A DNA stretch of 32,953 nucleotides from Armatimonadota bacterium (GTDB lineage Bacteria > Armatimonadota > Fimbriimonadia > Fimbriimonadales > ATM1): the NCBI GenBank assembly GCA_021324165.1, contig JAJPJR010000082.1, positions 1 to 32,953 of the forward strand, written 5' to 3'. The notes beneath the pieces were generated by a model, which saw only the letters and a program-made list of their open reading frames with translations, did not search any database and was not told the DNA's origin. How positions within the stretch are numbered: position 1 is the first letter of the stretch; every line of letters starts with the position of its first letter. This document shows, piece by piece, positions 1 through 16,185 of the stretch. A program made the translations under genes and the position numbers.

Positions 1-1512
1 GCCCCGATCGTTCGCGTTCACCGCCGCATTCGGGTCGTACATCCTCAGCGTCTGCTGAATCATCGCGTCAATCTCGGCAGGAGGCAGATCGCCGATCCGT
101 CCAAAACCTTTGTCCGCGCTTCGGCTCCAATACTCAAACCCATAACCGCCGCTCTTCACGCTGAACGCTTTCGAGTCGAACCCCTGGCTCCCGGCATCTA
201 CGCTGCTCATTTGAAACGCCACCGATGGGCCCTTAAACTTTTCGGAAGTGCTGAACGCGATGTCGCTTCGGTCGAGCCCGCGCTCCCGCGCCCAAATCTC
301 GCGTTCATTTTCCGCAAGATCCTTCGCGCGCATAAACCCGTTGTCGAAATTCTGCGAAAGATAACTCAAATTGAAAACGGGGCCCGTGAACTGAATCCCT
401 TTCATCCGAATCTCGCCATGCTCATCGCCGATCGTCGTTTGGTTGAACTTGAGCGATGACTCCCCGCCGAAACTCAATGCGGCTCCCATCACCGCGCGGT
501 CAATCCCTTTCTCTTTGGCAAGCTGATCGCGATCGGCTTCTGCGATATCAGCGAACCGCGTGAACCCTTTGTCAATGCCCCGCGACTGATAGAACGCTTC
601 GAACCCGTGCGTCTTCAATCCATAATTCGCCCACTCGATTCGTGCATCGCCGTCTTGCAAAACTTTCAACGTGTTGCCGATCGAAACAGTCTTGTCACTT
701 CCTGCGCTGATGCCCATGCCATACCGCTGAAGGCCTTTCTCCTTTTGCAGTTGAAGCGCCGTTTTGTCGTCATACCCCGCACCTTGCAGCATTCCAAAAC
801 CCGCGAACTTCTTGCCGACGTTTTGATAATCCAAATCAAGCTTCAAACCGTCGAATGTGCCGCTGAACTTCTGCAGAATCAACTTATCCGTTCCTTCGAT
901 TCCGCGGATCGTGTTCGATTGGTCAGGAGAAGATGAATCCGCCCTCACATCCGGCCGCGACTGGCTCGAAACCAAAAACAGCCCCGAAAGCGAACCGCCC
1001 CCAAACGAAAGATGATTCTTCAGTCCTGCCAGATTCAAATTCATCATCGAGCCGTCGGCAAACCGGCTCACGCTGTTCATTCCCAGCATCATCTGGATGT
1101 CGCTTTCCTGCCCGAAATGCAAACTCAGCAGCGGAAGAGCAAATCCCGCTGCTTGCTGCTTCGCTGCATTGGGATCGTGCCGATATGCAACCCGGATGGA
1201 CTGGTCGGATCGAACTCTGGCCGAAATATAAATCACGCCGCCCGCGTAATCCACCGAGTAATCGTCGCCCTCTTTCAACGGCGCGCCATCCAGTTCAACG
1301 CGAACCGAACCGCGAATCACCCCGCCGTATCGCAGCGGAAAGCCGATGCCTTGTCGGCGGGCAGGCATCACATCAACGGCCAGCTGGCCGCCGAGTTGCG
1401 GAGGCGGCGCCAACTCCACCTTCTGGCCCGATTCCAGCATATCTTGCGCGAGCGCAACTGTCGGCACGCACACCGCGCCGGTCAAGGTTGCAAGCGCAAA
1501 TCTCCGTTTCAT
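1..1512 (-). CDS. Exported protein with ~76-residue tandem repeats (partial)
   Basis: The reading frame is open from the ATG at 1512 to the window edge (504 codons, no stop), so the C-terminus is missing. The product begins with a typical signal peptide (MKRR, hydrophobic stretch, ALA-Q near residue 22). Residues 40-110 look like a beta-rich module with 'LDGAPLKEGDDYSVDYAGG', a pattern seen in exported proteins that precede outer-membrane-type barrels. From residue 225 a unit recurs: aromatic beta-strand, then K/N-G-F-x-R-x-x-D-L/I, an acidic helix, and (K/R)-E-(K/R)-G-(I/L)-D-R. KEKG-like motifs lie at 258-260, 334-336 and 410-412, with a degenerate fourth near 488. The upstream anti-sigma-like gene ends 18 bp before this start, so the two are probably co-transcribed. 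Function is not recognised; a surface or outer-membrane location is inferred. Confidence 0.75.
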   Translation of the reverse strand, partial: MKRRFALATLTGAVCVPTVALAQDMLESGQKVELAPPPQLGGQLAVDVMPARRQGIGFPLRYGGVIRGSVRVELDGAPLKEGDDYSVDYAGGVIYISARVRSDQSIRVAYRHDPNAAKQQAAGFALPLLSLHFGQESDIQMMLGMNSVSRFADGSMMNLNLAGLKNHLSFGGGSLSGLFLVSSQSRPDVRADSSSPDQSNTIRGIEGTDKLILQKFSGTFDGLKLDLDYQNVGKKFAGFGMLQGAGYDDKTALQLQKEKGLQRYGMGISAGSDKTVSIGNTLKVLQDGDARIEWANYGLKTHGFEAFYQSRGIDKGFTRFADIAEADRDQLAKEKGIDRAVMGAALSFGGESSLKFNQTTIGDEHGEIRMKGIQFTGPVFNLSYLSQNFDNGFMRAKDLAENEREIWARERGLDRSDIAFSTSEKFKGPSVAFQMSSVDAGSQGFDSKAFSVKSGGYGFEYWSRSADKGFGRIGDLPPAEIDAMIQQTLRMYDPNAAVNANDRG

Positions 1513-1530: not shown

Positions 1531-2409
1531 TCAGAACTGAATCTTGTCGGCGTCCTTCAAATCGGTTCGGTTCTTGTTGTGTTCTTTCAGCATCGCGCGA
1601 AGCGCCTCATTCGCGTCGGGTTGCGGTTCCGGCTGCGCCGCCGCCGTGCTCGGCGCGTCGTCATCCGAGATGATCGCCACCACGTCGGGCCTTTGGGGCG
1701 CAGGAAACGGAACCGAATTCCCGGCTCCAGCCGAAGGCATCACTTTGGTTTGGCCCGCAGGCGCCACGGTCGGCGGGGCTAACTTCTTCGCATCGCTGCC
1801 CTTCGGCTTCAATCCCCCTGCCGTCGAGCCCACCATTGACGCCTCCATCACGGCTTGCATCAGCCGCGAGTCCCCAAGCCGAGGCTCTGACTGTTCTGTC
1901 GTCGCCACCCTCACGGGCTGCATGATCGAGCCGGACGACAAAGGCGCTTTTTCGAACTCTTTTTCAGCCGCTGGCTTCGTTACGGGAGCCGTGCTCCGCT
2001 CGGTTCGCATCGCTGCCAAATCCGAGAACCTTCCCTGCCCGCTCGTCGGCGCGTTCAAACGCACCACGCCCGCAAACAGAGCCGCCGCGGCCAGAGCGGC
2101 CGGAACAGCCCATCGCCAAGCCGTTCTCGGCTTGCGGTCACCCGTCGTTCTCGACAGAATCTCCGCTTTCAGAGCCGCCGGAGGCTCGAACTGCTCACTC
2201 AGCAGAGCAGCCTGCGCCCGAAGATCGGAGAGCACCCCCATCGCCTGAGGCGAGCCCGCCAAGTAAGCATCCACAAGCCGCCGCTCCTTGACCGAGCACT
2301 CGCCATCCAGATAAGCCGAAAGCAGTTCGAACATCTCTTCATCCAGGCTTTCCGCCGGGGCCGAGATCTGAAGTTCGTCCCAAATATCGAGTTGTTTCTG
2401 ATCGTCCAT
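1531..2409 (-). CDS. Anti-sigma-factor-like single-pass membrane protein
   Basis: 292 residues. The N-terminal part has an acidic helical segment with LLSAYLDGECSVKERRLVDAYL (written here as two overlapping helices, residues ~29-50), which resembles the start of the anti-sigma domain found in ECF anti-sigma factors (L-S-A-Y-L-D-G-E-L). The usual zinc ligands HxxxCxxC are absent; only one Cys (in GEC) is present, so it would be a non-zinc variant. One membrane segment lies at about residues 100-117 (AVPAALAAAALFAGVV). The rest is Pro/Ala/Lys-rich and probably disordered and periplasmic. No sigma factor gene lies beside it: upstream is the divergent rplJ promoter, downstream the exported repeat protein. 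It may regulate through an unlinked sigma factor, or the domain may have been reused as a membrane scaffold. Confidence 0.65.
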   Translation of the reverse strand: MDDQKQLDIWDELQISAPAESLDEEMFELLSAYLDGECSVKERRLVDAYLAGSPQAMGVLSDLRAQAALLSEQFEPPAALKAEILSRTTGDRKPRTAWRWAVPAALAAAALFAGVVRLNAPTSGQGRFSDLAAMRTERSTAPVTKPAAEKEFEKAPLSSGSIMQPVRVATTEQSEPRLGDSRLMQAVMEASMVGSTAGGLKPKGSDAKKLAPPTVAPAGQTKVMPSAGAGNSVPFPAPQRPDVVAIISDDDAPSTAAAQPEPQPDANEALRAMLKEHNKNRTDLKDADKIQF

Positions 2410-2576: not shown

Positions 2577-2582
2577 CCTTGA

Positions 2583-2665
2583 CCGTCTCCGCAGACAGCC
2601 GGCGCCCCGCAATCGCAGGGCCTAAGATTCCAGCCAGCCGAGGAGGGCGAACTCGAGCGATTTTT
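2583..2665 (+). ncRNA. L10 ribosomal protein leader
   Basis: The 5' untranslated region of rplJ has the hallmarks of the L10(L12)4 binding leader: the CCGCAGACAGC element at about 2589-2599 and a CCAGCCGAGG element at 2634-2643, close to the CCUGCCGAGG seen in known L10 leaders, separated by a GC-rich hairpin. Established role: excess L10-L12 complex binds this kink-turn-containing RNA and represses its own operon. Boundaries are approximate because I judged by motif and position only. Confidence 0.7.
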
Positions 2666-2667
2666 CG

Positions 2668-2700
2668 CGAGGAGCCGTCCGCGTCTGTGGAGGCTCCTCG
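2668..2700 (+). promoter_or_regulatory. Stem-loop between L10 leader and rplJ (possible attenuator)
   Basis: Perfect 9-bp stem CGAGGAGCC (2668-2676) with GGCTCCTCG (2692-2700), 15-nt loop, followed by AACTGTTTTA. The U-tract is weak but could terminate transcription. The left arm borders an alternative small hairpin (GCGA/TCGC around 2657-2668), so mutually exclusive folds controlled by L10 binding are possible. Confidence 0.5.
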
Positions 2701-2722
2701 AACTGTTTTAGGGGACCGAAAA

Positions 2723-3247
2723 ATGCCGACAGCCAAGAAGATCGAACTCGTTGAAGCCGCTGCCAACTGGATAGAGCAGTCGAGTGGATTCATTTTCACC
2801 GAATACCGCGGTTTGAACGTGCAGGAGATTCAGCAGCTGCGCCGAGCGATCCGCGAGGCAGGCGGCGAGTTTCACGTGGTCAAAAACACCCTTCTCAGGC
2901 GCGCTTTCGGTGAAAAAATCGCCGGCGTTCCCGAAGAGTTTCACAACGGCCCCACCGCAACGGCGTTCCTTTTCAAAGATGAAGCCGCCTGCGCCAAAAA
3001 ACTGTTCGAGTTTGCAAAAGCCCACGCCGCGCTCAAAGTCAAGGGCGGCATCATCGAAGGCAAAACGATGGACGCCAAACAGGTGGAGGCGCTTTCCAAA
3101 CTTCCCAGCCGTCAGGAGCTGCTTGGAATGATCGCAGGCTGCGTCGCCGCCCCCCTTGCGAACCTTGTTGGAGTGCTTCAAGAAACCATCGCCGCACCCA
3201 TCAGGGCGATCGGTCAGATCGCTGAGCAGAAGGGCAGCGCGGCCTAA
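2723..3247 (+). CDS. rplJ: Ribosomal protein L10
   Basis: 174 residues, usual length for bL10/uL10. It anchors L7/L12 dimers to the 23S rRNA to form the ribosomal stalk. Sequence features: N-terminal [20 protein letters not shown], '[23 protein letters not shown]', '[11 protein letters not shown]', 'GPTATAF', and a C-terminal helix ending [11 protein letters not shown] for L7/L12 binding. The frame is open upstream to 2579, but the ATG at 2723 is chosen because AGGGGA sits just upstream, the homologous N-terminus starts there, and the upstream part is the RNA leader. First gene of the rplJ-rplL operon, probably autoregulated by the leader. Confidence 0.96.
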
Positions 3248-3281
3248 TCAAAGTTTCAAACAATCAACCAGGAGAAAACAG

Positions 3282-3671
3282 ATGCCAAACGTCGTTGAAG
3301 AGATCGTCGAAAAAATCGCCGGAATGTCCGTGCTCGAACTCAGCGAGCTGAAAACAGCCCTCGAAGAGAAGTTCGGAGTTACAGCCGCCGCCCCCATGGG
3401 AATGCCCATGATGGCCATGCCTGGAGCGGGAGGAGGCGAAGCCGCAGCCGCCGAAGAGAAAACCTCCTTCGACGTGATCCTCGAAAGCGCCGGAGACGCC
3501 AAGCTTCAGGTGATCAAAGCCGTCAGGGCCGTTACCGACCTCGGGCTGATCGAAGCCAAAGACCTCGTCAATGAAGCGCCCAAGCCCCTCAAAGAAGGAG
3601 TCTCGAAAGACGACGCCGAAAAGATCAAGGCGGCAATCGAAGAGGCCGGAGGGAAGGTTACGATCAAGTAG
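3282..3671 (+). CDS. rplL: Ribosomal protein L7/L12
   Basis: 129 residues. Stalk protein that recruits translational GTPases. The N-terminal dimerisation helix ([26 protein letters not shown]) is followed by a Met/Ala/Gly hinge with [13 protein letters not shown], then the C-terminal domain with '[24 protein letters not shown]' and '[20 protein letters not shown]' and the terminal GGKVTIK. Start at 3282 is set by the GGAGA ribosome binding site nine bases upstream and by homology. It lies 34 bp after rplJ and ends 26 bp before the operon terminator. The Met-rich hinge is slightly unusual compared with Ala/Glu-rich hinges. Confidence 0.97.
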
Positions 3672-3697: not shown

Positions 3698-3727
3698 GGG
3701 AACCGCCCAAAGCGGTTCCCTACTTTT
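3698..3727 (+). terminator. Intrinsic terminator of rplJL
   Basis: Perfect 9-bp stem GGGAACCGC (3698-3706) / GCGGTTCCC (3712-3720), loop CCAAA, followed by TACTTTTTT. The right arm touches the stop codon of the convergent recombinase gene (3720-3722). On the minus strand the stem lacks a good T-tract, so it acts mainly on rplJL. Confidence 0.88.
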
Positions 3728-4640
3728 TTGCCCGCGGGTGGGCTTTGTCGTACTTCTCCTGGAGCGTATCGAGGTCGAGCCGCGTGTACCGGTCGGTTGT
3801 GGCGATGGACTCGTGTCCCAACAGCTCTTGCACCGAGCGCAGGTCTGCTCCAGCCTGCACCAGATGCACCGCATAAGAATGCCGCAGACTGTGCGGCCCA
3901 ATTTCGATATCCAGCCCCGCCTTCTCGGCGTGTTTTCGAAGCATTCGAAAAACCCCCGACCGGGAAAGCGGCCTTCCAAAACGATTCAAAAAAATCACGG
4001 AGCCCGAACGTTCATTCGCGAACGAACGCCTGCATGATTCCAAATAGGTTCTCAGCCAGTCGTGGGTTTCCGCCGGAATCGGAACCACGCGCGTTTTCGA
4101 TCTTTTGCCCGTGACTCGAAACACCGATTCCGATTCGATGTAATCCGAGAGCGACAGCGAGATCAGTTCGCTCACGCGCAGTCCAAGCCCGTACATCGCT
4201 TCCATCATTGCTCGGTCGCGCAGACCTTCTTTTGTCGAAAGATCGGGCGCCGAAAAAAGCGCGGCGATCTCGGTTTTGGTCAACGCTTTCGGAATCAAGT
4301 TCGGCAGACGCAAATCGGGCGGCTTAACATCAGCCGAAAACCCTTCGCCGCTCTCGCGCAGAATGAACTTATTGAACGATCGGATCGCAGAAAACCGCCG
4401 CGCGATGCTGCGCGCGTTCAGCCCTCTCTGTCTCAGCCGTTTCCCATATTCCCCAAGCGTCTGCTGATCAATTTCCGAAAGAGCCCCAATTCCAACTTTC
4501 GAAAGAAACGCGCGAAACTCGGTCAGGTCGCGGGAATACGCCTGAACGGTGTGCGCGCTCGCCGCACGTTCCGCACGCAGATGCTGCAAGAACGCTTCGA
4601 TCTGATCGCTTAACGCGTCAAACTCTTTTGAAAAAGCCAT
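3720..4640 (-). CDS. xerC: Xer-type tyrosine recombinase
   Basis: 306 residues, the usual XerC/XerD length. Site-specific recombinase expected to resolve chromosome dimers at dif. N-terminal SAM-like core-binding domain (residues ~8-95, with 'FLQHLRAERAASAHTVQAY'), C-terminal catalytic domain with R155 (GLGLRVSEL), K179 (TGKRSKTR), H250 and R253 (HSLRH), H276 (LLGHESI) and nucleophile Y285 (DRYTR). All catalytic residues are present. I start at the ATG at 4640, which gives the canonical Xer N-terminus; the open frame continues upstream inside the glycosyltransferase gene. It overlaps that gene's 3' end by 31 bp and is last in the operon. XerC and XerD cannot be separated from sequence alone; it may be the only Xer (XerA/XerH type) or one of a pair. 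Confidence 0.9.
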   Translation of the reverse strand: MAFSKEFDALSDQIEAFLQHLRAERAASAHTVQAYSRDLTEFRAFLSKVGIGALSEIDQQTLGEYGKRLRQRGLNARSIARRFSAIRSFNKFILRESGEGFSADVKPPDLRLPNLIPKALTKTEIAALFSAPDLSTKEGLRDRAMMEAMYGLGLRVSELISLSLSDYIESESVFRVTGKRSKTRVVPIPAETHDWLRTYLESCRRSFANERSGSVIFLNRFGRPLSRSGVFRMLRKHAEKAGLDIEIGPHSLRHSYAVHLVQAGADLRSVQELLGHESIATTDRYTRLDLDTLQEKYDKAHPRAKK

Positions 4641-6328
4641 ACCACCGGTCTGATGTACATCATATCGTGCGGCTCGGGCATCGCTTGACGGCAGAGCGCA
4701 CGCAGGTCGCTCCTCGAAACGATTCCGGCATTCGGATCGGAGCCCGCCGCCTGAATGTGCCCGCCCCAAAACTCCGCGCGAAGCCGATACTCCTTGCAGA
4801 TCAGTTGGATCGTCTTTTCAAACTCGGGCTCATTCAGCCTGTCGTGATCATAAAACTCAAAGCTGCTGAACACAATGTAGTCGGGATGCAGTTCGGTAAC
4901 CAATCGCGAATCCCACTCGATGCGGGGTCCGCTCGGCGGCACATAACGCAGCAGCCGCGGACTCTGTTTTCGCATCGAATCCAGCCGGCGGTTTGCATCC
5001 AACTCGTCGGTATCGGGAAACAGCGTGGGCGAATAAAACCACGGATCGTTCACAAACCCGATGGTTGCTTCCGCCGGAAGGTTTTTCGAAACCCATTCTC
5101 CGCACACATCCCTCGCGTCGGGCTGGGTCATGATGTTTGTCATTTCAACGACCCCGGTCGGCGCGGTAATTCCAAACAGCAGAAACACTCCGCACAGTGC
5201 GGCCGCCCATCGCGCCTTTCCGCCCTTTGCGTGCAGCTCACCTGTCAGATAACCAACGCCGATCGTCAAGATCAGAACCAGCGGAAACGCATACCTCATG
5301 AACTTCACTTCCGCTCGCCCAATCACCAAAAAAAACGCCGCAAAAAACAGAAGCAGAAGAATCCAGACTTGGGGACGCTTCACCGCGGCCCAGATCAAAC
5401 CGGCAATGCCCAGCACGCTTGCCCCCAGTCCCATCGCTGCCGGAAAATTCACCACCGGGTGATACAAAAACCCCGACGGTGTGCTCACAAACACAAGTCC
5501 GTGCCCCTGAGCCGAATGACCCAACTCATAACCGAAATCTCGGGCGAACACCGGCCATTCCAACAGCACCCCTGGCGTCGCCGCCAAAAAACCCGCGACC
5601 GCCGCACCCGTCAACGCCAAACCAGTTCGAAGGAGAGCGCCGCGGCACGCTGTCAGCCCTGGAATCAGCAGCAACGCTCCCAAGTATTTCGAACCCGCCG
5701 CGAGCCCGATCAACAAACCCGCACCTGCGGCCAGTCGAAGTTTCCGCTCGTTTTCCGCAGCGGATAAGAGACAAACGAAATACAGGGCGAGAGCGATCAT
5801 CATCGTCGAGAACGCATCAACCGTTTCAAACCGCGAATGCACCACCATGCCGGGCGCGGTCATCATGCAAAACGCCGCAACCGCCGCCCCGAACAGATTC
5901 GTAACGAACAGCGCCAGCAAAAACACGATGGACACCGCCGCAGCTCCCGAAATCGCGCTGATCACTCTTCCCGTTAGTTCGATTCCGCGCAAGGTTCTCC
6001 ACGTCTCCACGTTTTCGCCCGTCGGAACCCAACCGTAAGATTCGCCCATATTCGATCCCAGCTTCAAAACGGTCAGATACAGCGAGCCGTAGTTATAAAA
6101 CCCAGGTTTGAAATAAGGGTTAGAATAAGCCGCAGCCGCCGTGATAAGTTCGTCGGGATGCAGCGACTGGTGACGGTTCTCATTCGGCAGTCCCCAACCG
6201 ATCCCGATGCACCGGATCAGCAGCGATATGAGGAACAGCCAAACCGCAATCCAAACCCGCGTCCGACGTATGGGGCGCGCCGAAAGCGCTTCAAACCACA
6301 ACGGAACGGTTTGACTGTCGTTCGGCAC
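4610..6328 (-). CDS. GT39-like polytopic membrane glycosyltransferase (PMT/ArnT superfamily)
   Basis: 572 residues, GTG start at 6328. A GT-C fold protein: first membrane helix (WIAVWLFLISLLIRCIGIGWGL), then a large extracytoplasmic loop with HPDE (57-60), the acidic metal/catalytic motif of this superfamily, followed by about ten further hydrophobic segments (e.g. AAAVSIVFLLALFVTNLFG, LLIGLAAGSKYLGALLLIPGL) and a soluble C-terminal domain from ~410. Such enzymes move sugar from a polyprenyl phosphate carrier to protein or lipid on the outer side of the inner membrane. Donor and acceptor are unknown. Its start overlaps the degenerate HD-GYP gene by 38 bp and its end overlaps xerC by 31 bp, so translation is probably coupled. 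Confidence 0.8.
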   Translation of the reverse strand: MPNDSQTVPLWFEALSARPIRRTRVWIAVWLFLISLLIRCIGIGWGLPNENRHQSLHPDELITAAAAYSNPYFKPGFYNYGSLYLTVLKLGSNMGESYGWVPTGENVETWRTLRGIELTGRVISAISGAAAVSIVFLLALFVTNLFGAAVAAFCMMTAPGMVVHSRFETVDAFSTMMIALALYFVCLLSAAENERKLRLAAGAGLLIGLAAGSKYLGALLLIPGLTACRGALLRTGLALTGAAVAGFLAATPGVLLEWPVFARDFGYELGHSAQGHGLVFVSTPSGFLYHPVVNFPAAMGLGASVLGIAGLIWAAVKRPQVWILLLLFFAAFFLVIGRAEVKFMRYAFPLVLILTIGVGYLTGELHAKGGKARWAAALCGVFLLFGITAPTGVVEMTNIMTQPDARDVCGEWVSKNLPAEATIGFVNDPWFYSPTLFPDTDELDANRRLDSMRKQSPRLLRYVPPSGPRIEWDSRLVTELHPDYIVFSSFEFYDHDRLNEPEFEKTIQLICKEYRLRAEFWGGHIQAAGSDPNAGIVSRSDLRALCRQAMPEPHDMMYIRPVVWLFQKSLTR

Positions 6329-14176: not shown

Positions 14177-15070
14177 ATGAAAGCAGATTTTGAACGCCTT
14201 CGGCTGCTCGTGCAGCGATCCGGCACCATTCCGGCACTTCCAGAAACCGCAAGCGCGATCATCAGAATGATTGATCAAGACGAGCCGTCGGCGCGCGAAC
14301 TCGAAAGGCTCATCAGCAGAGATTCAGGACTCACTGCCGAAATTCTGCGCATGTCTTCGAGCGGCGAGCACGGCTTGCGGCATTCGGGCTGCACTTCCAT
14401 CCGATCAGCCATTCTTCGACTCGGCATGCGTGCGGTGCGCAACATGGCAAGCGCCACGCTTGTCCGCCAATCGTTCAAACTCCTTTCGCTGCCGCCGAAG
14501 TTCGATCTGGTTCGGTTTGGCAGGCATTCGCTCGCATGCGCGTTTCTCAGCCGGTACGTGTTTTCGCGCCTGCAAAAAATCCGCCCGTTTCAATCCGAAC
14601 TCGCCGCCGACGAGGTGTTCGCCTGCGGTCTGTTGGGAGATATCGGAATCGGAATCCTTGCTCACGTCAGCGTTGGAGACTATTCGAGAATCGAAAAGTT
14701 CGCCGAACGCAACGGCCTTACGCTCAGCGAGGCGTTCGAGAAACTGTATTCAACGCCGATTGATCACCTCACGGCCGAGGCGCTCACCGTCTGGAAACTC
14801 GACCCGCTGTTTGTGAACATCATCAAAATGATGTCCACCCCATGGGAAGCCGAGGACGAATACGAAACCACATGCTGTCTGAGTTATGCGCGGAGCGTGC
14901 TGCCCGCGCTCGGCTTCGGCTACGAATCTTGGAAATGCGAATCGTGGGCGCCGCCCGAAGTGGATGCAGAAATCGGCATTGACCGCGCAGAACTTGAAAC
15001 CGTCCGCGAACTCCTGCAGCCGCGCATTGACGAATATCTCGATTCAGTCGGCCTCCGCATCGCGGCATAA
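14177..15070 (+). CDS. HDOD domain signalling protein
   Basis: 297 residues. HDOD domain over residues ~12-205: 'LPETASAIIRMIDQDEPSARELERLISRDSGLTAEILRM', 'GCTSIRSAILRLGMRAVRNMA', 'FACGLLGDIGIGILAH' and 'HLTAEALTVWKLDPLFVNII'. HDOD proteins resemble HD phosphohydrolases but lack the catalytic HD; the site here reads GD instead, so a regulatory or scaffold role is expected. Start at ATG 14177 (GAGGGGAT 10 bases upstream) is preferred; the frame is open to 14027. It stands alone, divergent from carAB and convergent with the aminoacyltransferase gene (20-bp gap). Within 13941-14176 I see only the carAB promoter and no clear promoter for this gene. Confidence 0.82.
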   Translation: MKADFERLRLLVQRSGTIPALPETASAIIRMIDQDEPSARELERLISRDSGLTAEILRMSSSGEHGLRHSGCTSIRSAILRLGMRAVRNMASATLVRQSFKLLSLPPKFDLVRFGRHSLACAFLSRYVFSRLQKIRPFQSELAADEVFACGLLGDIGIGILAHVSVGDYSRIEKFAERNGLTLSEAFEKLYSTPIDHLTAEALTVWKLDPLFVNIIKMMSTPWEAEDEYETTCCLSYARSVLPALGFGYESWKCESWAPPEVDAEIGIDRAELETVRELLQPRIDEYLDSVGLRIAA

Positions 15071-15090
15071 CAACGGGAATTCGCACTTCA

Positions 15091-16185
15091 CTATCGCGGG
15101 AATATGGGGCGGCTCGATCCTCCTTGCCGCCTCGACCCGCGATGCACCAGCCACACCATCTCCTGTCTGGCGGCTTTCAGGATGCCCGAAGCAAACGCCG
15201 CCGCCGGATGAACGCCGGTAAACGCACGCACCACAGCCAGCAAAGCCCGCAAACTAAAACGACTTTCGGTGCTGATGGCATAAACAGGTTCCCACACATC
15301 CGGGATGAACTTTGACTTGAAAAAATCAAGGCCGTCGAAATTATAAAACCGGCGCATATGAGCGCGCGCCCATGCGGCAAGGCTTCGCAGCCACGCCGGA
15401 TTAACCGACATCGCGATGCGCGCCTGTTTCGATAAAGGTACCATTCCCATCGAAACGAATTTGGATCCGTCCGCCGCAATCGCGCTGATCGCTTCACGAA
15501 GCGTTAACTCCACAGTTCCGTTCGGCGCGTTTTTGCCTCGAACGAACATCTCGGTGAGCCAACCCTCGCGTGCCGGAATTGGCGCAAGCGAAACAAACCC
15601 GATCGGCACGCCTTCGCGTTCCGCAACAAATATCCGCCGCCCGTCAGGCCGTTCGAAAATCTGCGGTTCGATCAGAAAATGCATCGGAGGCAGACCGCGG
15701 GTCTGCAGCCAATGATCCAAAACGTTTCTTAGATCAGCGCTCTGTTTCACGCGACCCAGCGGCCATTCCGAAACGCGAACTCCTTTGCTCATCGCGCGGC
15801 TGAATTGCGCCCTGAGCGAGGCCGTTTCCCGCGCTCTCTGCAGCCACGATTCAGCAGTCCAGCACGGCTGCGCTCCCACAACAACTTTCGAATATCCCGG
15901 CGCTTCATGCAGTGCCGACTCGAGCCTCGATTCGGCGCAAAAATAGCAAACCGGCGAACCCCCATCCGAACTCTCCCACTCCGCAATCGTCTGCTTCAAA
16001 TTCGATTCGTGCACAACCGGGGCGCCCGCAACCACACGAAACCCGTCAGCCCGAACATAACCCACCATCGAACCGCCGTCTTCGCCGAACCATCTGCGCA
16101 TTCCTGGGTTCAAAATCTGAAAGCACGTCGTGTTCCATCCAAATCGGTAAACCAACTCATACGCACGCTGCAAATCGTCATCCAT
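15091..16185 (-). CDS. DUF2156 / phosphatidylglycerol lysyltransferase C-terminal domain protein
   Basis: 364 residues, soluble. Matches the C-terminal catalytic domain of MprF/LPG synthase (DUF2156): tandem GNAT-like halves, with 'YELVYRFGWNTTCFQILNPGMRRWF' near the start, 'GLPPMHFLIEP' mid-protein, 'GVPIGFVSLAPIPAREGWLTEMFVR' and the diagnostic 'RRFYNFDGLDFFKSKFIPDVWEPVY' near 290. In MprF this domain transfers lysine or alanine from aminoacyl-tRNA to phosphatidylglycerol. The N-terminal flippase membrane domain is absent, so the substrate may be another lipid or small molecule. The last ~60 residues are weakly hydrophobic then basic. ATG overlaps the dtd stop by eight bases; last gene of a six-gene operon. 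Confidence 0.8.
   Translation of the reverse strand: MDDDLQRAYELVYRFGWNTTCFQILNPGMRRWFGEDGGSMVGYVRADGFRVVAGAPVVHESNLKQTIAEWESSDGGSPVCYFCAESRLESALHEAPGYSKVVVGAQPCWTAESWLQRARETASLRAQFSRAMSKGVRVSEWPLGRVKQSADLRNVLDHWLQTRGLPPMHFLIEPQIFERPDGRRIFVAEREGVPIGFVSLAPIPAREGWLTEMFVRGKNAPNGTVELTLREAISAIAADGSKFVSMGMVPLSKQARIAMSVNPAWLRSLAAWARAHMRRFYNFDGLDFFKSKFIPDVWEPVYAISTESRFSLRALLAVVRAFTGVHPAAAFASGILKAARQEMVWLVHRGSRRQGGSSRPIFPR

What the first reader, a model, noticed from the sequence alone, without database searches (positions are those of the whole stretch)
34..813. Exported protein with an unrecognised ~76-residue tandem repeat
Translation of the minus-strand frame shows the motif K/N-G-F-x-R/x-x-D-L/I followed by an acidic helix and (K/R)-E-(K/R)-G-(L/I)-(D/Q)-R at residues about 234-263, 315-339, 391-415 and 468-493. 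The EKG-type elements are spaced 76 and 76 residues apart, then 78 in a worn fourth copy. Between them lie amphipathic beta-strand pairs. The pattern suggests a barrel or solenoid in which each unit adds strands and one helical excursion. I know no named family with this unit. The gene runs off the left edge, so more copies may follow.
Basis: partly seen in the sequence, partly recalled or inferred. Interest (0 to 1): 0.6.

Follow-up and report, generated by a model that had tools for sequence, protein, structure and literature searches.

The report
Giant outer-membrane barrel built from repeats
The repeat is real: it is the start of a ~1165-residue outer-membrane protein, found in most Armatimonadota genomes sampled, that appears to have grown by duplicating a module of four membrane strands plus one helix, and that may form a barrel with more strands than any single-chain barrel solved so far.

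Summary
Window 1-1512 (-) is the first 504 residues of an exported protein cut by the contig end. Self-comparison at offset 76 scores 75, against 27.7±4.1 in shuffles. The rest lies on contig C57 of the same genome. Full-length orthologues (~1165 aa, one per genome) occur in 55 of 61 order-level genomes searched; homologous matches reach 125 of 151 sampled Armatimonadota. There are six units, not four. Unit profiles match each other at up to 99.7% probability; control segments do not. Each ~76-residue unit is four amphipathic β-strands plus one helix excursion (invariant F and G). "Worn" is wrong for copy four: it carries a conserved ~23-residue insertion. AlphaFold2 predicts ~54 antiparallel strands ending in an OMP β-signal (41 of 53 homologues end in F). 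The model fits the 30-strand SlpA and 36-strand SprA barrels far better than small barrels. No known family covers it; only a ~50-residue N-terminal domain resembles SprA. LptD is a separate gene. Function is inferred: a large-bore outer-membrane conduit partly closed by a ring of helices. Barrel closure and the side the helices face are unresolved. One reduced genus keeps BamA and LptD but lost this barrel together with lipid A synthesis.

The parts
1..1512 (-). 5' part (504 codons) of the giant outer-membrane beta-barrel gene; truncated by the contig end. The C-terminal 623 residues are on G000:C57 (13063-14931, -), with ~38 residues missing between the contigs
   Evidence: profile positions 5-506 on C82, 545-1162 on C57
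1447..1512 (-). signal peptide, residues 1-22 (...VALA|Q)
   Evidence: sequence; all 14 aligned orthologues keep a hydrophobic N-terminus and an invariant Q just after it
1174..1389 (-). small beta-sandwich domain, residues 42-113 (GSVRVELDG..L.EG.DYSVDYAGGVIY); the only part with similarity to T9SS SprA
   Evidence: NCBIfam TIGR04189 E 3e-6, 24.6 bits against a cut-off of 200
817..1146 (-). first barrel strands, residues 123-232 (5-6 strands before the first helix)
724..951 (-). unit 1 (degenerate; only its second half plus helix aligns), residues 188-263
   Evidence: hhalign u1-u2 95.6%, u1-u3 95.8%
496..723 (-). unit 2, residues 264-339: 4 strands + helix (F..R..DI..ADR..LAKEKGIDR)
268..495 (-). 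unit 3, residues 340-415: 4 strands + helix (F.R..DL.ENER..WARERGLDR)
1..267 (-). unit 4, residues 416-504+: 4 strands + a longer helix and a conserved ~23-residue insertion; cut by the contig end
   Evidence: unit 4 is 96-102 residues in all 14 orthologues
1531..2409 (-). upstream neighbour in the same direction (short gap): putative zf-HC2-type anti-sigma factor, weak match below the Pfam and NCBIfam cut-offs; also upstream of the barrel in several relatives (L036, L038, L040, L042)

Best explanation
The finding is the N-terminal part of a single-copy integral outer-membrane beta-barrel, made of a signal peptide, a small SprA-type beta-sandwich, a long antiparallel sheet and a C-terminal BAM beta-signal. 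The first half of the sheet is six successive copies of a module: four membrane-crossing strands followed by one helix that leaves the wall at the same side every time. The second half (~28-29 strands) has no helices. In all about 54 (+-2) strands are predicted, with very short turns. The barrel grew by serial duplication of the module and differs by whole modules between families. Shown: the repeat, six copies, conservation, strand/helix pattern, amphipathicity, beta-signal. Predicted: that the strands form one closed, very large barrel. Inferred: it is a large-bore outer-membrane conduit whose lumen or mouth is narrowed by the ring of six helices, linked by conserved Arg/Asp/Glu residues, and it passes a bulky substrate. 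I put about 0.8 on the barrel-with-modules architecture, about 0.4 on one closed barrel of more than 40 strands, and about 0.35 on the conduit function.
For: Repeat far above shuffles. Unit profiles u2-u6 match one another at 97-99.7% and u1 matches u2/u3 at ~96%, while pairs that involve the eight control segments of the same protein reach only 49-55%, in two cases. Six units in nearly all Fimbriimonadales sequences, mostly 4-6 elsewhere in the phylum; f28 members lack about one unit's worth of sequence. Each unit has hydrophobic/polar alternation at positions 3-5-7-9, 13-15-17, 34-36 and 41-43-45, with F54 and G73 invariant in 56 copies. Over 54 predicted strands, alternation on the interface scale is z=5.4 against within-strand shuffles (units z=2.0, second half z=5.4). 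41 of 53 homologues end in F with the alternation of a beta-signal. AlphaFold2 gives strand-strand-strand-strand-helix in two separate jobs (pLDDT 77.6 and 75.1). The Foldseek and VIA lists are dominated by outer-membrane barrels. Large barrels superpose best: SlpA (30 strands) 6.0 A over 372 residues and SprA (36 strands) 6.8 A over 356, against mostly 12-15 A for 16-26-stranded barrels; both matches cross the junction between repeat half and C-terminal half. BamA is present in all 13 genomes tested.
Against: Global confidence of the full-length model is low (pTM 0.47) and its alignment had only 9 rows, two of them partial plus the 504-residue window protein. Alternation in the repeat half is weak on one scale (z=0.2 with Kyte-Doolittle) and absent in the window sequence alone. 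The strand count is uncertain at residues 129-136 and 898-910, and that parity decides which side the helices face. No substrate or partner gene was identified.
Confidence: 0.65

Rival explanations
1. Same architecture, but structural: an abundant outer-membrane scaffold or porin like SlpA/OmpM of other Terrabacteria, stabilising the envelope rather than exporting cargo.
For: One copy in nearly all genomes of the order; best low-rmsd fold match is the SlpA barrel; SlpA carries insertions inside its pore (PMC9388160).
Against: No SLH domain or coiled coil, the defining tether parts, in any member (Pfam); a separate SLH-like protein occurs in this genome (L106:2-487, by sequence inspection).
Confidence: 0.25
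2. It serves lipid or LPS placement in the outer membrane, as a partner of TamB or of lipid A-containing membranes.
For: In genus g30 (1.48 Mb genome G054) the barrel, LpxC, LpxD, LpxA and the TamB-like protein are all lost, while BamA, Skp, LptB, LptF/G and LptD are kept.
Against: One co-loss in a strongly reduced genome. LptD is a separate gene next to LptG and stays when the barrel is lost, so this is not the LPS translocon itself.
Confidence: 0.2
3. The chain forms two barrels (about 26 + 28 strands) rather than one, as predicted for GfcD with its 12 + 13 strands.
For: The helix-bearing half and the helix-free half differ in character; multi-barrel outer-membrane proteins are predicted (PMC11494523).
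Against: The SlpA and SprA superpositions run through the junction (model residues 594-1008 and 509-934) at 6-7 A, so the modelled sheet is continuous and flatter than a 26-strand barrel (LptD 13.3 A, MtrB 13.4 A).
Confidence: 0.2
4. It is a soluble or periplasmic beta-groove (bridge-like lipid-transfer type, like TamB), not a membrane barrel.
For: A long repetitive amphipathic sheet could also line a lipid groove; ApoB100 is the top Foldseek hit.
Against: C-terminal aromatic beta-signal in most homologues; four-strand meander with tight turns matching outer-membrane barrels; no TamB/AsmA profile match, while a separate TamB exists.
Confidence: 0.08

Closest known systems
SprA/Sov, the T9SS outer-membrane translocon (36-strand barrel)
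   Same: Very large single-chain barrel; related small beta-sandwich domain (TIGR04189 positions 603-654); similar sheet curvature (6.8 A over 356 residues)
   Different: SprA is ~2300 aa; no barrel sequence similarity; scores 24.6 bits against a cut-off of 200; no genome tested has a SprA over the cut-off; module repeat not seen
SlpA/OmpM of Deinococcus and other Terrabacteria (30-strand trimeric barrel)
   Same: Large barrel with insertions, similar curvature (6.0 A over 372 residues), deep-branching diderm
   Different: No SLH domain, no coiled coil, no sequence similarity
Predicted 38-stranded barrels of Deinococcus radiodurans (PMC9388160)
   Same: Very large predicted single-chain barrels in a Terrabacteria diderm
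   Different: Sequences not available here; helix-bearing repeat modules are not reported in the passage read; fewer strands
LptD (26-strand LPS translocon)
   Same: Outer-membrane barrel with N-terminal beta-domain; Foldseek hit
   Different: No PF04453 or jellyroll match; the genomes carry an LptD-like gene beside LptG
Beta-hairpin amplification model of outer-membrane barrel evolution (eLife 2018, PMC6340704)
   Same: Barrels grow by duplication of strand units
   Different: There the unit is one hairpin and gives 8-26 strands; here a still readable unit of two hairpins plus a helix, six copies

Membership tests
Outer-membrane beta-barrel protein (general) | Sec signal peptide | tested here: met
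   MKRRFALATLTGAVCVPTVALAQ; conserved hydrophobic N-terminus and invariant Q in 14 orthologues, by inspection
Outer-membrane beta-barrel protein (general) | C-terminal beta-signal with aromatic last residue | tested here: met
   LRLDYQLRF-type ending; 41 of 53 homologues end in F with alternation
Outer-membrane beta-barrel protein (general) | Antiparallel amphipathic strands with the barrel fold | tested here: met
   closure of the barrel not tested
SprA/Sov (TIGR04189) | Whole-protein score over the curated cut-off (200 bits) | tested here: not met
   24.6 bits over 50 residues; no genome of 13 over the cut-off
SprA/Sov (TIGR04189) | 36-strand barrel | tested here: inconclusive
   ~54 strands predicted, pTM 0.47
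SprA/Sov (TIGR04189) | T9SS partners (PorV, GldKLMN, CTD substrates) | not tested
SlpA/OmpM | SLH domain and coiled-coil stalk before the barrel | tested here: not met
   no SLH match by Pfam in 14 members at E<=1; no long helix in the models before the barrel
LptD | PF04453 barrel and PF03968 jellyroll | tested here: not met
   no match in the protein; a different LptD-like gene lies beside LptG
Omp85/BamA/TamA | Omp85 barrel with POTRA domains | tested here: not met
   no match; BamA is elsewhere in the genome

The most novel reading that the evidence does not exclude
A single closed barrel of about 54 strands (roughly 105 A across by barrel geometry, against about 70 A for 36 strands) in one ~1165-residue chain: larger than any solved single-chain membrane barrel, grown in quanta of four strands plus a helix, and conserved through a little-studied phylum.
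Probability: 0.38. Interest if true: 0.82.

Novelty: new variant of a known kind. Interest (0 to 1): 0.6.

Why it matters
Outer-membrane barrels are thought to have grown by duplicating hairpins, but traces are usually faint. Here the module is still readable, larger than a hairpin, and differs in copy number between families, so growth of a barrel by whole modules can be followed on a tree. If the predicted ~54 strands close into one barrel it would exceed SprA (36) and the predicted 38-strand Deinococcus barrels. It is also a candidate core envelope component of Armatimonadota, whose outer membrane is almost unstudied.

Tried and rejected
(1) Chance repeat: rejected. (2) Known family: Pfam, NCBIfam, PHROGs and PDB-sequence searches give only sub-cut-off or noise matches; the HHH_5 and DUF2460 hits are noise. 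(3) LptD replacement: PF04453 was absent in 13 genomes, which looked promising with LpxC and LptF/G in 13/13, but that profile also misses Synechococcus, Thermus and Deinobacterium, and ~740-800-residue LptD-like genes lie beside LptG in relatives, with a similarly placed 826-codon frame in this genome. (4) SprA orthologue: only the ~50-residue domain is shared, and a second ~860-1000-residue family in the same genomes has it too. (5) Single-sequence amphipathicity test gave nothing; the alignment-averaged one did. (6) search for related loci with the window protein found no relative; with an alignment of close relatives it found eight. (7) First reading of the topology put the helices in the periplasm (even strand count before each). 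Re-reading residues 898-910 as a membrane strand, and the rule that outer-membrane proteins have tight periplasmic turns, would put them on the outer/lumenal side. Left open.

Full report
WHAT IS THERE. The window is a whole contig (G000:C82) of a 2.33 Mb genome whose named relatives are Fimbriimonadales, Armatimonadota. The minus-strand frame 1-1512 encodes 504 residues with a signal peptide and runs off the contig. A 623-residue frame entering from the edge of contig C57 is its C-terminal part: the family profile covers positions 5-506 on C82 and 545-1162 on C57, so about 38 residues are missing between contigs.

THE REPEAT IS REAL. Ungapped self-comparison of the 504 residues gives 75 at offset 76 (residues 310-339 against 386-415); 60 shuffles give a mean maximum of 27.7, sd 4.1, top 37. 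In 14 full-length orthologues (26-47% identical to the reference) the protein divides into six units of about 75-76 residues, except unit 4, which is 96-102 because of a conserved insertion after its helix. Profile-profile comparison of the unit columns gives 99.7% for u2-u3, 97-99% for the other pairs among u2-u6, and ~96% for u1 with u2/u3 (weaker with u4 and u6). Pairs that involve the eight control segments from the rest of the protein reach at most 55%. A profile of the unit finds six copies in nearly all Fimbriimonadales members and mostly 4-6 in more distant members. In family f28 the matches overlap on the target by about one unit while running on continuously in the profile, i.e. one unit fewer.

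ANATOMY OF A UNIT. Over 56 copies, hydrophobic residues sit at 3, 5, 7, 9; 13, 15, 17; 34, 36; and 41, 43, 45, alternating with polar ones: four short amphipathic strands. Then come V50, the invariant F54, R56, D59, L60, E62, E64, R65, a large hydrophobic residue at 68, the invariant G73 and R76. AlphaFold2 gives the same strand-strand-strand-strand-helix order in two jobs (window protein: pLDDT 77.6, pTM 0.64; full-length L052: pLDDT 75.1, pTM 0.47).

THE WHOLE PROTEIN. After the signal peptide comes a small beta-sandwich (residues ~42-113 of the window protein), the only part with a named relative: NCBIfam SprA, E 3e-6, 24.6 bits against a cut-off of 200. Then 5-6 strands, the six units, and a C-terminal half of ~28-29 strands without helices, ending in an outer-membrane beta-signal (...LRLDYQLRF; 41 of 53 homologues end in F with the alternation). 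The model has 54 strands of mean length 11.4 with very short turns. Alignment-averaged alternation over these strands is z=5.4 on the interface scale; it is stronger in the C-terminal half than in the units, and not visible in one sequence alone.

SIZE. No sequence relative is in the PDB. Fold matches are dominated by outer-membrane barrels, led by the largest ones (SprA, LptD, FimD) and the beta-belt of ApoB100. In the second look the 30-strand SlpA fits at 6.0 A over 372 residues and the 36-strand SprA at 6.8 A over 356, while most 16-26-strand barrels fit at 12-15 A. The SlpA match spans model residues 594-1008, across the border between repeat half and second half, which speaks against two separate barrels. 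I had no coordinates, so closure is not tested. Published comparators: SprA has 36 strands (PMC10994853), SlpA 30, and three D. radiodurans proteins are predicted with 38 (PMC9388160). I found no paper naming a 40-, 42-, 48-, 54- or 56-stranded barrel in the library searched.

WHICH SIDE. If all strands of the model are counted, the helices leave after strands 6, 10, 14, 18, 22 and 26, i.e. on the periplasmic side. But residues 898-910 look like one more membrane strand and strand 129-136 is weak. With that change the tight two-residue turns fall in the periplasm and the helices on the outer or lumenal side, which fits the usual rule. Unresolved.

DISTRIBUTION AND CONTEXT. A match is found in 58 of 61 genomes of the order-level set, in nearly all as one full-length or contig-cut barrel gene (in G011, G038 and G042 only the N-terminal domain matches), and in 125 of 151 Armatimonadota genomes (some only by the N-terminal domain or distant partial matches). 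Other phyla were not searched. Upstream in this genome and several relatives is a zf-HC2-like protein. The lineage has BamA in 13/13, LpxC in 13/13 and LptF/G in 13/13 genomes, and an LptD-like gene beside LptG, so this barrel is not LptD.

A NATURAL DELETION. Genus g30 (two genomes, ~1.5 Mb, 97% complete) lacks the barrel and LpxC but keeps Omp85. I fetched essentially all of G054 (1,478,054 bases): profile and tblastn searches find no barrel, LpxC, LpxD or TamB-like protein and only a weak hexapeptide match for LpxA, while BamA, Skp, LptB, two LptF/G and LptD remain. The barrel is thus dispensable when lipid A is gone, in one lineage. This is a single event within general genome reduction and does not prove a link.

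MECHANISM I FAVOUR. A BAM-inserted, very large barrel whose wall is built from duplicated four-strand modules. The six helices form a regular ring, tied by conserved Arg/Asp/Glu residues, that narrows or gates the wide lumen, so that a bulky substrate can pass without leaving an open hole. Shown: modules, conservation, strand and helix pattern, beta-signal. Predicted: barrel and its size. Inferred: gating and transport. Rivals are a structural scaffold (SlpA-like) and a role in lipid placement.

Noticed in passing
G054 (L112-L195), G055; BamA loci L110, L111: A reduced Fimbriimonadales genus (~1.5 Mb) keeps BamA, Skp, LptB, LptF/G and LptD but has lost LpxC, LpxD, LpxA (only a weak hexapeptide match) and the TamB-like protein: apparently an outer membrane without lipid A that still keeps the Lpt machine.
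   Followed up: partly
L035:1-1977 (-) (G000:C61) and ~860-1000-residue relatives in other genomes: A second, different exported protein family in the same genomes carries the same SprA-like beta-sandwich domain (TIGR04189 positions 592-684).
   Followed up: partly
L034:348-7903 (G000:C57): By inspection of translations: a run of YD/Rhs-like repeat fragments interleaved with small lipoprotein-like genes, resembling a polymorphic-toxin cassette array.
   Followed up: no
L196:3722-14046 (G000:C19): Envelope cluster TamB-like (1493 aa), sigma-factor-like, BamA, Skp-like, LpxD, LpxC; LpxA-like follows at 14483-15268.
   Followed up: partly
L105:1350-3827, L107:1179-3404, L109:4583-6847, L140:14206-16617: Divergent LptD-like proteins beside LptG that PF04453 does not detect; a profile gap for LptD outside Proteobacteria.
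   Followed up: partly
window 2579-3671, 3720-4769, 4610-6328: Ordinary neighbours: ribosomal proteins L10 and L7/L12 (by sequence), a tyrosine recombinase, a PMT-type glycosyltransferase.
   Followed up: no
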